The notes under the pieces: model-generated
The model's input: only the letters and a program-made list of their open reading frames with translations
Told to the model about the DNA's origin: nothing
The model's database searches: none
Assembly (NCBI RefSeq): GCF_007748195.1
Contig: NZ_CP037920.1
Location: forward strand, 1,799,501 to 1,863,500
Reading direction: 5' to 3'
Origin: Gimesia aquarii
GTDB lineage: Bacteria > Planctomycetota > Planctomycetia > Planctomycetales > Planctomycetaceae
Length of the DNA: 64,000 nucleotides
Shown: positions 41,074 to 45,630 of the stretch, in pieces
How positions within the stretch are numbered: position 1 is the first letter of the stretch
Layout: each line of letters opens with the position of its first letter
Position numbers and translations under genes: made by a program

Positions 41074-43341
41074 ATGGCAGACGAACAATTCTCGGATTCT
41101 ATTTTCTCTGACGTTCCACGAGATCTGACTGGGGGGTTAGTCGTCTTTCTTGTGGCGTTGCCTCTTTGTTTGGGAATTGCACTGGCTTCCGGAGCTCCCT
41201 TATTCTCCGGTTTGTTAGCCGGGATTGTTGGTGGGCTTGTTGTCGGGTCTATCAGTGGCTCCAGTACTAGTGTCAGTGGGCCGGCAGCAGGATTGACAGC
41301 GATTGTTATCGCACAGCTTGCTGCTTTGGGGTCTTTTGAAGCTTTTCTGTTAGCCGTCTTTATCGGTGGCATCATTCAAATCGGTCTGGGGATTATCCGA
41401 GCTGGATCACTATCAGCGTTTTTTCCTTCAAGTGTGATCAAGGGTTTGCTGGCCGCCATTGGTGTGATTCTCATTCTGAAACAGATTCCTCATGTGCTGG
41501 GGCACGATACCGATCCGGAAGGGGAAATGTCATTTTCTCAGCCTGATGAGCAAAATACCTTTTCAGAAATTCTTACAGTTGTTGCGGGAGATATCCATTT
41601 TGGAGCAGCCGTTGTGGGACTGCTTTCGATTGCCTTACTGGTAGTGTGGGGACGAGTTCGATTCTTAAAAAATTCGCTGATTCCAGGACAGCTGGTTGTT
41701 GTATTGCTTGGTGTTCTGCTTCATATATTTTTTCAAAGTCTAGGCAAACCCTGGGCGATTGGAGTCACTCATCTTGTCCAGATTCCTGTTGCTGAATCTG
41801 CTAATGATCTTTGGACTTTTTTCCAGTTTCCTGATTTTTCACAGTGGAATAATCCGGCCGTTTATTTCGGGGGTATTACCATTGCCATTGTGGCTTCGCT
41901 TGAAACGTTGCTAAATCTGGAAGCGGTCGACAAGCTTGATACTTTGAAACGCAATTCACCACCCAGTCGAGAGCTGGTAGCGCAGGGAGTAGGAAACATT
42001 GTGTCGGGCCTGATCGGTGGACTCCCAGTGACTTCTGTAATCGTGCGTAGTTCTGTTAACGTAAGTGTTGGCTCGAGAACCAAACTGGCCACCATTTTTC
42101 ATGGTGTACTGCTTTTGGTTTCCGTCATGTTGTTTCCCATCTACTTGAATATGATTCCGCTTGCCGCGTTGGCTGCGATTCTGTTGGTCACAGGGTTCAA
42201 ACTTGCCAGCCCGGCCTTATTTCGCCAAATGTTGAAGGAAGGTCGTTACCAGTTCATACCGTTTCTCGTAACGCTGCTCTCTATTGTGTTCACAGATTTG
42301 CTGGTTGGTATTTTGATTGGATTGGCTGTCAGTGTCTTGTTTATCCTTAACAGCAATCTTCGTCAGCCGATTCGGCGGATTGTAGAGACCCATCTGGATG
42401 GCGACATTCTGCATATCGAATTGGCAAATCAGGTTAGTTTTCTGAACCGTGCAGCGCTCAATAGACTATTCGATGACGCACAACGCGGCACTCATTTGCT
42501 GATTGATGCTACTGGGACTGACTATATCGATCCTGATATTTTGAGTTTGATCCAAGAGTTTAAATACAATATTGCGCCAACACGAGGTATTTCAGTGAGT
42601 CTGCGTGGGTTTCGTAAAAGGTACCAATTACACGATGAAATACAATTTGCAGACTTCACGACACGGGAGTTGCAAGATCGCGTTACGCCGGAACAGGTTC
42701 TCGAAATTTTGCGTGAAGGCAATCGACGTTTTTACACCGGCAATCGACTTTCACGAGACTTTGGACGGCAAGTTAATGCCACAGCTGGAGAACAAAACCC
42801 ATTAGCAGTTGTGCTAAGTTGTATTGATTCTCGTGTACCCGCTGAATTGGTTCTGGACTTGGGGATTGGGGATATTTTCAGTGTTCGTGTTGCCGGAAAT
42901 GTGATCGGTACGAAATCACTGGCGAGTATCGAATATGGAGTGGGGGTCGCTGGTGTCAAATTGGTTCTTGTATTAGGGCACACACGTTGTGGTGCGGTGA
43001 AGTCTTCGCTTGAACTTTTAGCAGAAAATAAAGATGTTCAACAAACAACAGGTTGTTCCCATCTGGAAGCAATTATCAACGAGGTCGAACATTCTACGGA
43101 CAAAGAAGCCTGCAAACGCTTAAATGATATGAGTCCAGCAGATCGAGAGACATTCATAGATGATGTCGCCAAGCAAAACGTTCTCAGGACAGTGCATGAA
43201 ATTATAGAACGTAGTGATTCAATTCGAGAAAAAATGGATGCCGGGCTGGTGATGGTTGTTGGCGCGTTATATGACGTGAAAAGTGGAGAAATGGAGTTTC
43301 TCCTGGAGCAACCACCGGTGAGAGAAACACAAGCTTCCTAA
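41074..43341 (+). CDS. SulP anion transporter fused to STAS and beta-carbonic anhydrase
   Basis: 755 residues. About 1-430 is a SulP/SLC26 membrane domain with many hydrophobic segments (GGLVVFLVALPLCLGIALASG at the start). About 435-535 is a STAS domain. The remaining 210 residues are a beta-carbonic anhydrase with complete zinc site: Cys583-x-Asp-x-Arg (CIDSRVP), His636 and Cys639 (GHTRCGAV). The design fits bicarbonate import or export coupled to CO2 hydration at the membrane. The fusion type is known in bacteria; the direction of transport is not. No clear ribosome site. A 14-bp hairpin covers the stop codon. Confidence 0.95.
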   Translation: MADEQFSDSIFSDVPRDLTGGLVVFLVALPLCLGIALASGAPLFSGLLAGIVGGLVVGSISGSSTSVSGPAAGLTAIVIAQLAALGSFEAFLLAVFIGGIIQIGLGIIRAGSLSAFFPSSVIKGLLAAIGVILILKQIPHVLGHDTDPEGEMSFSQPDEQNTFSEILTVVAGDIHFGAAVVGLLSIALLVVWGRVRFLKNSLIPGQLVVVLLGVLLHIFFQSLGKPWAIGVTHLVQIPVAESANDLWTFFQFPDFSQWNNPAVYFGGITIAIVASLETLLNLEAVDKLDTLKRNSPPSRELVAQGVGNIVSGLIGGLPVTSVIVRSSVNVSVGSRTKLATIFHGVLLLVSVMLFPIYLNMIPLAALAAILLVTGFKLASPALFRQMLKEGRYQFIPFLVTLLSIVFTDLLVGILIGLAVSVLFILNSNLRQPIRRIVETHLDGDILHIELANQVSFLNRAALNRLFDDAQRGTHLLIDATGTDYIDPDILSLIQEFKYNIAPTRGISVSLRGFRKRYQLHDEIQFADFTTRELQDRVTPEQVLEILREGNRRFYTGNRLSRDFGRQVNATAGEQNPLAVVLSCIDSRVPAELVLDLGIGDIFSVRVAGNVIGTKSLASIEYGVGVAGVKLVLVLGHTRCGAVKSSLELLAENKDVQQTTGCSHLEAIINEVEHSTDKEACKRLNDMSPADRETFIDDVAKQNVLRTVHEIIERSDSIREKMDAGLVMVVGALYDVKSGEMEFLLEQPPVRETQAS

Positions 43342-43368
43342 CTTGAAAGCAGGATTTCAAGTTAGGAA
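43335..43368 (+). terminator. Hairpin across the stop codon of the SulP-carbonic anhydrase gene
   Basis: Perfect 14-base arms (43335-43348 and 43355-43368) with a 6-base loop GCAGGA; the TAA is inside the left arm. No T-run follows, so it may be a Rho-dependent or 3-prime protective structure more than an intrinsic terminator. Confidence 0.5.
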
Positions 43369-43421
43369 TGGATAAAACTAGAACAAAGCAATCGTTAATT
43401 ATATTTTTTTGCGATTTCTAC

Positions 43422-43733
43422 TTATTCGCGTAACGCTATCTCAAACATTGCAGCACTATACGATGCTTTTCCCTGTTTGATTTCAATCTTCCCTTTCACA
43501 GGGATTACTGTAGATACTGGCTTTTGCTTGCGTTTAATCGTTAAATGAGGAGTGGTGCAAATAAGATCGCCAATTGTAATTTCAATCATAGGACCTTGTT
43601 TTGTTTGAATTGAACGCAGAATTGCCATCTCACTCTCGAAGAACCCTTTCTGATTTCCTTCCGACACCGAAAAACAGGTAATCGTAAAGAGACAGACTAA
43701 CGCACAAATGATCGTTTTAAAATGAAACACCAT
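43422..43733 (-). CDS. Small secreted protein of unknown function
   Basis: 103 residues. A signal peptide is visible (TIICALVCLFTITCFSVSEG) and AAGGGA lies before the ATG. The mature part is short, mostly beta strands, rich in K and I (TPHLTIKRKQKPVSTV). No family recognised. It lies downstream of the DeoR-sensor-like gene on the same strand, 222 bases away. Confidence 0.6.
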   Translation of the reverse strand: MVFHFKTIICALVCLFTITCFSVSEGNQKGFFESEMAILRSIQTKQGPMIEITIGDLICTTPHLTIKRKQKPVSTVIPVKGKIEIKQGKASYSAAMFEIALRE

Positions 43734-43955
43734 CGAATCCCTTCTTTAATTTTATAATACTGCTCAAGCAGCAAGAACAAATGCTGTTAAATAAACAGAA
43801 ATATCATCCCTTGAATATTGCATATGGATCTTAAAGAGTTTGCGGCTAGTAAGAAATGGATTTTTCTCCTTTATCAATAAACAGTCAATAACTAATGTAT
43901 TTCCAAAAGCCTGTTTAGTTTTACTTAAAAACGTCTGCCACTGATTGGGAAATCT

Positions 43956-45134
43956 CTAATTTAGTTGACTTAATTGTTCAGAGTTATCATCAATAATAGC
44001 CTCATGAAAGCGGCTTTCATTCATTGGTGTACTACGCAACATGGAATCGAAGGCTTTTGCTGCCTGCACATAATCCCGGATAGAAGGGGCTTTGAGTTCC
44101 TTAATGTCAGTTGAAATTATATCACGATCCTGAATATTTGGTTCAATCGATTTAAAATGTGAATGAATTGCAGGTGGAGGTGATGTCGCGATCGAAAATC
44201 GTTCATAGTTTTTTTCTATCGTCGACCTCCATTCTTTTGCAGTTGCATAGATAGGAATCCCATAGTTACTACGATTGTTTTGGAGGTGTTTATGATAATC
44301 TGCTATGAAAACGATCTCTCTTACGTTCGCTTCGAGTGCAGAATCGATAATTTGTTTCTTAACGGCATAAGTGTCTCCATCTTTACTGAATGGACCATCA
44401 TCCGGTAACAATCCATTTACAGAAATGATCACAACTGTTGCCTGAGGGTCGTGTGAAATGGCACGTTCAAACTGCTTTTCCGCATCAGTTTTAAATGTAC
44501 CTCCATGTTGTGTGCATTGCAGGTTTGCATCGAAATCGGCATCACCTCCTATTATTGAAAAACCGCGATGGAATGCACGTGCAACACATGGATTGTCTCG
44601 CATCTCTCGAATTAATACGTCATTAGAAGTCGTAATTCGAACATTCTTTCGGAATGAAGCGATTGCTAAACCGGCGTAAGTACAACTTGAACCATCGGGA
44701 ATGACTATATTGTCTCCATCTCGGACGATAGATGCTGTTCCATTTGCTCGAACTTTAGAATTGGCGATTAGTCTCCCGACAAGTTTTTTCTCGAGTTGCC
44801 TTTCATAAAGCTGAGTGCCATATCGAGAAGCAGTGGAATAGATTCCGAGAGGTTCTAAAGAATCCAAATGCCATTGCCACCATTCTTCTACCGATGTTTT
44901 TAGGAATTCATCGACTGTCTGACCAAATCGATCCGCGGCGATTTGGCCTATTTTATGATGCCTTAAGACTTCACCAAATGGATGAAGTCTGCGTTTTGAA
45001 AGATCGTAGGAGACATCGAGGAAATTATTGAATGTTTGGGAGCGTGAGATATGACTATGTTGCTCTGTTAAAAGCTTCTTATACTCTTCCCAGTTTATCT
45101 TTTGTCTTTGGAGTAAAAAATTTCCGAACTGCAT
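43956..45134 (-). CDS. Protein with a DeoR-sensor-like (ISOCOT) domain, no DNA-binding domain
   Basis: 392 residues with a perfect AAGGAGG ribosome site. Residues 1-130 are helical and basic, without an HTH signature. About 145-320 shows the order of the DeoR C-terminal sensor: IVIPDGSSCTYAGLAIASF, RITTSNDVLIREM, FSIIGGDADF, then VKKQIIDSALEANVREIVFIADYHKH. In DeoR regulators this domain binds a phospho-sugar and is always tied to a winged helix. The C-terminal 70 residues look disordered or helical. I infer a metabolite sensor or an enzyme of the same fold; no function is known. Not recognised as a named family. Confidence 0.6.
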   Translation of the reverse strand: MQFGNFLLQRQKINWEEYKKLLTEQHSHISRSQTFNNFLDVSYDLSKRRLHPFGEVLRHHKIGQIAADRFGQTVDEFLKTSVEEWWQWHLDSLEPLGIYSTASRYGTQLYERQLEKKLVGRLIANSKVRANGTASIVRDGDNIVIPDGSSCTYAGLAIASFRKNVRITTSNDVLIREMRDNPCVARAFHRGFSIIGGDADFDANLQCTQHGGTFKTDAEKQFERAISHDPQATVVIISVNGLLPDDGPFSKDGDTYAVKKQIIDSALEANVREIVFIADYHKHLQNNRSNYGIPIYATAKEWRSTIEKNYERFSIATSPPPAIHSHFKSIEPNIQDRDIISTDIKELKAPSIRDYVQAAKAFDSMLRSTPMNESRFHEAIIDDNSEQLSQLN

Positions 45135-45630
45135 TTGATCCTCCTTGTGACCTCCCTGAGCAGTGGTATTTTTCTTTGTTGTAGAAGGTCTTAATAAATG
45201 TGGTGCATTTTACCTCTGGTATTACTAGGTATAGTTTGGAAGTGGTTTCGGTAATGGAACGATTTGAATGGATGAGTGCTTGTGGAAAGTAGGTATGCAC
45301 ACTGATATTTCCACGAACAGATAGTTGTCACTTTTTCATCCTAAGTTTCCAGCTTACTTTTTATGAGTAAAATGTCAAATAAATTTTTTTAGAATAGTTT
45401 AGATATGTGTGAGACTAGAGGGAATATGGTAAAGAGAACAGGTCGTTTTATAGTTAAATCGTAGGACTCACACCGACCCTAAGAGGCTAATCTGAAAGAG
45501 TTTTAGATTGACTCAGAATGACGTTAATATTCAGAAAATTTTTTTTACTGTAGGCAATAGACCTCAAGAGAAATTGAATTGTGTAATTAGTATTTTTGTT
45601 TCAGTTTCGAGTATGTTATCGGACTGCTGG
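45135..45630. other. Intergenic gap
   Basis: About 500 AT-rich bases, with no gene, RNA or terminator I can support. The short frame 45508-45744 on the plus strand overlaps the next gene and lacks a ribosome site. Confidence 0.35.

What the first reader, a model, noticed from the sequence alone, without database searches (positions are those of the whole stretch)
43956..45134. DeoR sensor fold without a DNA-binding domain
Several landmarks of the DeoR C-terminal domain (DGSSCTYAG, ITTSN, IIGG, FIADYHKH) occur in order, but a long helical N-terminus replaces the winged helix. It also has the strongest ribosome site in the window (AAGGAGG). It may be a stand-alone phospho-sugar sensor or a new enzyme of the ISOCOT fold.
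Basis: partly seen in the sequence, partly recalled or inferred. Interest (0 to 1): 0.6.

Follow-up and report, generated by a model that had tools for sequence, protein, structure and literature searches.

The report
Sugar-phosphate sensor lacking its DNA-binding head
This rare, apparently mobile bacterial gene encodes the sugar-phosphate-sensing half of a DeoR gene regulator with the DNA-binding half replaced by a small helical domain, so it probably senses a metabolite and signals to a partner other than DNA, which nobody has yet tested.

Summary
The ORF (392 aa) starts at the only start codon in the window with a complete AAGGAGG. Residues ~105-378 are a divergent DeoRC/ISOCOT domain: Pfam E 4e-5, below the curated cut-off; each full-length homologue also hits DeoRC; profile-profile E 2e-4; predicted fold closest to E. 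coli DeoR, Z 11.8. The Asp-x-x-Lys pair that binds the effector in LacR and UlaR is kept (D279, K282). No winged helix was found by Pfam, profile comparison or AlphaFold. The N-terminus is a separate helical domain; its best structural look-alike is the c-di-GMP-binding GSPII/MshEN bundle, but this is weak and the c-di-GMP residues are not conserved.

New here: the family is rare (three full-length lineages in 170 genomes of its family). It occurs as lone AT-shifted genes in unrelated sites, once antisense between prophage genes. The window copy lies in a ~2.3-kb stretch absent from two congeners. Isomerase catalytic residues appear replaced, so a sensor is likelier than an enzyme. Best reading: a horizontally moving, DNA-binding-free sugar- or nucleotide-sugar-phosphate sensor that acts through its helical domain, possibly phage-related. 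Ligand, partner and role are untested. New variant of a known kind.

The parts
43956..45134 (-). 392-aa ORF: N-terminal helical domain plus DeoRC/ISOCOT domain
45140..45146 (-). AAGGAGG ribosome-binding site, 5 nt before the ATG
   Evidence: only complete AAGGAGG upstream of a start in the window
45054..45134 (-). residues 1-27: first predicted helical pair (FGNFLLQRQKINWEEYKKLL), MshEN motif-I-like
   Evidence: AlphaFold of N-terminus alone, pLDDT 83-90 for residues 1-20; hhalign to MshEN profile score 19.3, shuffled max 16.8 of 300, but about 1% of natural segments score as high as the single sequence
44985..45053 (-). residues 28-50: poorly conserved, mostly low-confidence stretch where a DeoR recognition helix would lie
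   Evidence: indels between homologues; pLDDT <50 for residues 28-49
44859..44984 (-). residues 51-92: second helical unit with invariant P52, G54, L57, W85, W88, H89
   Evidence: block pLDDT 72-91 for residues 51-90
44001..44816 (-). residues 107-378: DeoRC/ISOCOT (Rossmann-like) domain
   Evidence: VIA-align to DeoR 7l6l_B Z 11.8; Foldseek R15P isomerase/eIF2B E ~5e-5; hhalign residues 105-320
44787..44789 (-). K116, aligned with the conserved Lys at the start of the DeoRC domain
   Evidence: MSA; invariant in A1
44289..44300 (-). D279-x-x-K282, equivalent of effector-binding Asp/Lys of LacR (D210/K213) and UlaR (D206/K209)
   Evidence: MSA; literature PMC10991401
44622..44627 (-). S170-N171 (TSN), DeoR-like; Cys position of MtnA-type isomerases appears to be Ser
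   Evidence: mapping to MtnA by eye
44412..44417 (-). N240-G241 (VNG); catalytic Asp position of MtnA-type isomerases appears to be Asn
   Evidence: mapping to MtnA by eye
43314..45630 (.). ~2.3-kb stretch absent from two congeneric genomes (about 50 nt there): likely insert carrying the gene and a small secreted-looking ORF
   Evidence: blastn comparison with L052 and L053; 97.7% colinear in G038

Best explanation
The gene encodes a stand-alone, non-DNA-binding sensor of the DeoRC/ISOCOT fold. The C-terminal domain (about 107-378) binds a phosphorylated sugar or nucleotide-sugar in the pocket built from K116, the 146-150 loop, S170-N171, G196-G197, N240-G241 and D279/K282. Binding changes the position or assembly of the N-terminal helical domain (1-92), which contacts a partner protein and is the output. 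The gene spreads as a lone accessory gene between planctomycetes, at least once with a prophage, so its role is more likely conditional (phage- or stress-related) than core sugar catabolism. Shown by computation: the fold, no detectable winged helix, kept effector residues, rarity, unrelated contexts, window copy missing from two congeners. Inferred: ligand binding, direction of transfer, partner, output and any phage role.
For: DeoRC Pfam hits in all three full-length homologues; hhalign E 2.3e-4 to DeoR; fold match Z 11.8 to DeoR. D-x-x-K and the upstream Lys conserved; these Asp/Lys residues bind sugar phosphate in LacR and UlaR (PMC10991401). N-terminus: no HTH by Pfam or hhalign, neutral to acidic (pI 7.0, 6.3, 5.4), helices within 1-27 and 51-92 predicted with fair confidence. 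HTH-less clade with the nearly bare DeoRC protein L057, support 99/99 (L057 is a long branch). Rarity: 5 of 170 family genomes, one of them only the L057-type partial match; absent from 50,697 phage and 72,556 plasmid records. Gene GC below surroundings in all three contexts: 40.5 vs 44-46, 52.7 vs 58.6, 50.0 vs 61.5%. Two congeners lack the stretch. L004 lies antisense among phage genes: head-tail joining (PF25138, E 2.5e-31) and an unnamed ORF on one side, tail-completion/neck on the other. Precedent for an ISOCOT-fold sugar-phosphate sensor that does not bind DNA: eIF2B (PMC8187479, abstract).
Against: No ligand, partner or phenotype data. Pocket residues typical of DeoR differ: the Arg and Glu that docking places in the CsqR pocket are not obvious here, so the ligand may differ. 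The overall model is weak (pLDDT 59.8). DeoRC scores stay below Pfam's curated cut-off. The phage link rests on one short contig (3.5 kb). With two haplotypes only, selection cannot be judged (4 synonymous, 3 nonsynonymous codon differences). GC depression and absence in two relatives also fit loss in those relatives.
Confidence: 0.55

Rival explanations
1. A new enzyme of the ISOCOT fold (isomerase, hydrolase or transferase on a sugar phosphate).
For: Foldseek ranks ribose-1,5-bisphosphate isomerase and eIF2B first (E ~5e-5); those proteins also carry a helical N-terminal domain (own knowledge); an acidic motif GG[DE]xDxD and VNGxxxDxGP are conserved in the family.
Against: VIA-align puts DeoR above the isomerases (11.8 vs about 9.4); isomerase Cys and Asp appear replaced by Ser and Asn (by eye), as in the engineered C135S and D204N mutants named in the PDB titles; no sequence match to MtnA; no metabolic neighbours.
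Confidence: 0.15
2. A phage-defence or superinfection-exclusion gene: the C-domain detects a nucleotide- or sugar-phosphate signal made during infection and the N-domain triggers the output. (A more specific form of the best explanation.)
For: Lone, AT-shifted, patchy gene; one copy antisense among prophage late genes; window copy absent at the same site in two congeners.
Against: No PADLOC or PHROG match; no defence-gene neighbours seen; not found in phage records or viral contigs.
Confidence: 0.25
3. A c-di-GMP-responsive variant: the N-terminal domain is a GSPII/MshEN bundle joined to DeoRC.
For: Of nine Foldseek hits the top five are T. thermophilus PilF GSPII-B; VIA-align Z 6.7-6.8, 55-56 residues, about 2 A, 23-26% identity; hhalign motif I score above 300 shuffles.
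Against: Foldseek E about 3; Z under 8 is common by chance; about 1% of natural segments score as high; no Pfam MshEN hit; the key Arg/Lys, Gly and Gln positions are not conserved among homologues and motif II is degenerate, with a spacer of about 26 residues instead of 5.
Confidence: 0.08
4. A decaying DeoR regulator whose HTH has been lost, with no function.
For: Divergent sequence, low Pfam score, patchy presence.
Against: Intact in three lineages; N-terminal W85, W88, H89, P95 and C-terminal pocket residues invariant at 35-38% overall identity; complete ribosome-binding site.
Confidence: 0.05

Closest known systems
DeoR-family repressors (PF00455 DeoRC plus HTH_DeoR), e.g. LacR, UlaR, CsqR, E. 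coli DeoR (7l6l)
   Same: C-terminal ISOCOT sensor domain, order of landmarks, Asp-x-x-Lys effector residues
   Different: no winged helix found; other N-terminal domain; pocket Arg/Glu not obvious; not next to a sugar operon
eIF2B alpha / ribose-1,5-bisphosphate isomerase / MtnA (PF01008)
   Same: helical N-terminal domain followed by the same Rossmann-like fold; eIF2B responds to sugar phosphate (PMC8187479)
   Different: no sequence-level match; isomerase catalytic Cys and Asp appear replaced; DeoR is structurally closer
GSPII/MshEN c-di-GMP-binding domain (PF05157), T. thermophilus PilF GSPII-B
   Same: helical arrangement of the N-terminal domain and motif I spacing (weak)
   Different: binding residues not conserved, longer spacer, no beta subdomain seen, no Pfam match
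Nearly bare DeoRC protein L057:9136-10062 of another planctomycete
   Same: HTH-less, sister to this family in the tree (99/99)
   Different: lacks the conserved N-terminal helical domain

Membership tests
DeoR/GlpR transcriptional regulators | C-terminal DeoRC sensor domain | tested here: met
   Pfam E 3.9e-5 to 1.9e-7 in three homologues, below curated cut-off; hhalign E 2.3e-4; DeoR fold Z 11.8
DeoR/GlpR transcriptional regulators | N-terminal winged helix-turn-helix | tested here: not met
   no HTH in Pfam; hhalign to DeoR HTH below shuffled mean; AlphaFold shows another helix layout with no recognition helix
DeoR/GlpR transcriptional regulators | Asp-x-x-Lys effector residues | tested here: met
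   D279/K282 conserved in all three homologues; role in LacR and UlaR from PMC10991401
ISOCOT fold superfamily | Rossmann-like core shared with DeoR, eIF2B and sugar isomerases | tested here: met
   the core has the best pLDDT of the model
MtnA / ribose-1,5-bisphosphate isomerase enzymes | catalytic Cys and Asp | tested here: inconclusive
   by eye Ser170 and Asn240 occupy these places; no statistical alignment to MtnA
MshEN/GSPII c-di-GMP receptors | four-helix bundle fold | tested here: inconclusive
MshEN/GSPII c-di-GMP receptors | two 24-residue motifs with (R/K/L)LG...Q binding residues | tested here: not met
   residues vary among homologues; motif II degenerate
Known anti-phage systems (PADLOC) | match to a described defence protein | tested here: not met
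   no hit at E <= 10
Known anti-phage systems (PADLOC) | protection against phage | not testable with these tools
   needs a plaque assay

The most novel reading that the evidence does not exclude
A mobile, single-gene signalling module in which a DeoRC/ISOCOT pocket recognises a sugar- or nucleotide-derived signal and acts through a GSPII-like helical domain on a protein partner, used in conflict with phages: a DeoR-type sensor outside transcription.
Probability: 0.15. Interest if true: 0.75.

Novelty: new variant of a known kind. Interest (0 to 1): 0.42.

Why it matters
DeoR proteins are known as sugar-phosphate-controlled DNA-binding repressors. A conserved, horizontally moving version with a different N-terminal domain would show that this pocket has been re-used as a stand-alone bacterial sensor, much as the same fold serves in eukaryotic eIF2B, and would give a small system in which ligand, partner and phage role can be tested directly.

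Tried and rejected
Winged helix hidden in the N-terminus: rejected (Pfam, hhalign, AlphaFold). MshEN/c-di-GMP domain: a guess from the sequence, then the top structural hit, but not accepted: Foldseek E about 3, natural decoys score as high in about 1%, binding residues not conserved. DNA binding by charge: N-terminus not basic. More homologues: none in viral contigs, phage or plasmid records, and only the two already known in genome contigs. N-terminal domain in other proteins: only weak chance-level matches in 397 genomes of the class. Solved relatives by sequence: none credible. BFVD fold search of the N-terminus: nothing. Mobile-element ends around the window copy: no convincing terminal repeats. 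Rfam: nothing. My first MtnA comparison picked a wrong ORF and was redone. Literature: no paper found on stand-alone DeoRC proteins.

Full report
The observation. The four landmark motifs occur in the stated order.

The C-terminal domain. Pfam finds DeoRC at E 3.9e-5 (24.1 bits; curated cut-off 31.8). Two full-length homologues from other genera, 38% and 35% identical, hit the same family at E 1.9e-7 and 2.3e-6. hhalign of the three against planctomycete DeoR proteins gives E 2.3e-4 over residues 105-320. AlphaFold on the three-row alignment has low overall confidence (pLDDT 59.8) but a good core; VIA-align ranks E. coli DeoR first (Z 11.8, 176 residues, 3.5 A), with eIF2B and MtnA/R15P isomerase next (Z 9-10). 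The fold is settled at the level of ISOCOT, with DeoR the closest kin.

Pocket residues. The alignment shows K116, S170-N171, G196-G197 and D279-x-x-K282 in DeoR positions. Asp210/Lys213 of LacR and Asp206/Lys209 of UlaR at the D-x-x-K position bind their sugar-phosphate effectors (PMC10991401). The Arg and Glu that docking puts in the CsqR pocket (same paper) are not obvious here; instead the family has GG[DE]xDxD and VNGxxxDxGP. A different ligand is therefore likely (inference). Compared by eye with the MtnA of the same genome, THCN reads TTSN and GAD reads SVN, so the catalytic Cys and Asp appear to be Ser and Asn, the same kind of change as in the engineered R15P isomerase mutants C135S and D204N listed. 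hhalign did not align the two families, so this is inference, not a test.

The N-terminal domain. No HTH is found by Pfam, and the profile score to the DeoR HTH is below the mean of shuffled decoys. Predicted alone, residues 1-27 and 51-92 form helices, with block pLDDT of 83-90 for residues 1-20 and 72-91 for 51-90, separated by a low-confidence, indel-rich stretch. Invariant residues include F3, F6, L7, E17, Y18, P52, G54, L57, W85, W88, H89 and P95. The best fold match is T. thermophilus PilF GSPII-B: Foldseek E about 3, five of nine hits; Z 6.7-6.8 over 55-56 residues. A profile comparison supports motif I above 300 shuffles, but about 1% of natural protein segments score as high as the window protein alone, and the published binding residues are not conserved. 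I treat GSPII-like architecture as possible and c-di-GMP binding as unlikely.

Distribution and context. Of 170 genomes in the bacterial family, five give a match: the window genome, a close relative (99%), two divergent full-length homologues, and a partial match to a nearly bare DeoRC protein. None of 392 genomes sampled across the phylum matched outside the genus, and none was found in phage, plasmid or viral collections. The genome-contig scan found only the two homologues already known. A tree joins the family with the bare DeoRC protein, 99/99 (long branch, so provisional). The gene is poorer in GC than its surroundings in all three contexts, and the neighbours differ each time. In G011 it lies antisense among phage genes (head-tail joining and an unnamed ORF on one side, tail completion/neck on the other) on a 3.5-kb contig. 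In the window, 43314-45630 is replaced by about 50 nt in two congeners that otherwise keep the SulP/carbonic-anhydrase gene on one side and the small ORF and GntR gene on the other. Recent gain is the simplest reading; loss in those two is not excluded.

Mechanism. Most likely: a ligand-controlled, non-DNA-binding sensor; the helical domain is the output and contacts a protein. eIF2B (PMC8187479) is a precedent for the same fold as a sugar-phosphate sensor that does not bind DNA. A phage-related role is a reasonable guess from context, not shown.

Novelty. The parts are known; this combination as a conserved, apparently mobile stand-alone protein was not found in the libraries or papers searched. 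I rate it a new variant of a known kind, interest 0.42.

Noticed in passing
L094:2841-3974 (+), genome G076, same genus: A DeoRC protein whose N-terminus has an H-x3-C-x2-C stretch (HLKECHECLLEV), like a zinc anti-sigma factor, overlapping the end of an upstream ORF (2150-2857) with a sigma-region-4-like C-terminus (no Pfam hit): possibly a DeoRC-controlled anti-sigma pair.
   Followed up: partly
L093:2626-3642 (+), genome G043: Another odd DeoRC protein inside what looks like a conjugative element, next to a TraG/TraD coupling protein and a replication-relaxation protein.
   Followed up: partly
L060:1153-2292 (-), window genome G000:C1 near 302196: A second divergent DeoRC protein (379 aa) in the same genome, directly after an FGGY_C kinase-like ORF.
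   Followed up: partly
L057:9136-10062 (-), genome G057: A nearly bare DeoRC protein without HTH, next to a gene that looks like class II fructose-bisphosphate aldolase; sister to the window family.
   Followed up: partly
window 43422-43733 (-): Small ORF (103 aa) with a signal-peptide-like start in the same insert; no Pfam or PHROG match.
   Followed up: partly
window 41074-43341 (+): SulP-like transporter apparently fused to a beta-carbonic-anhydrase-like domain, conserved across the genus.
   Followed up: no
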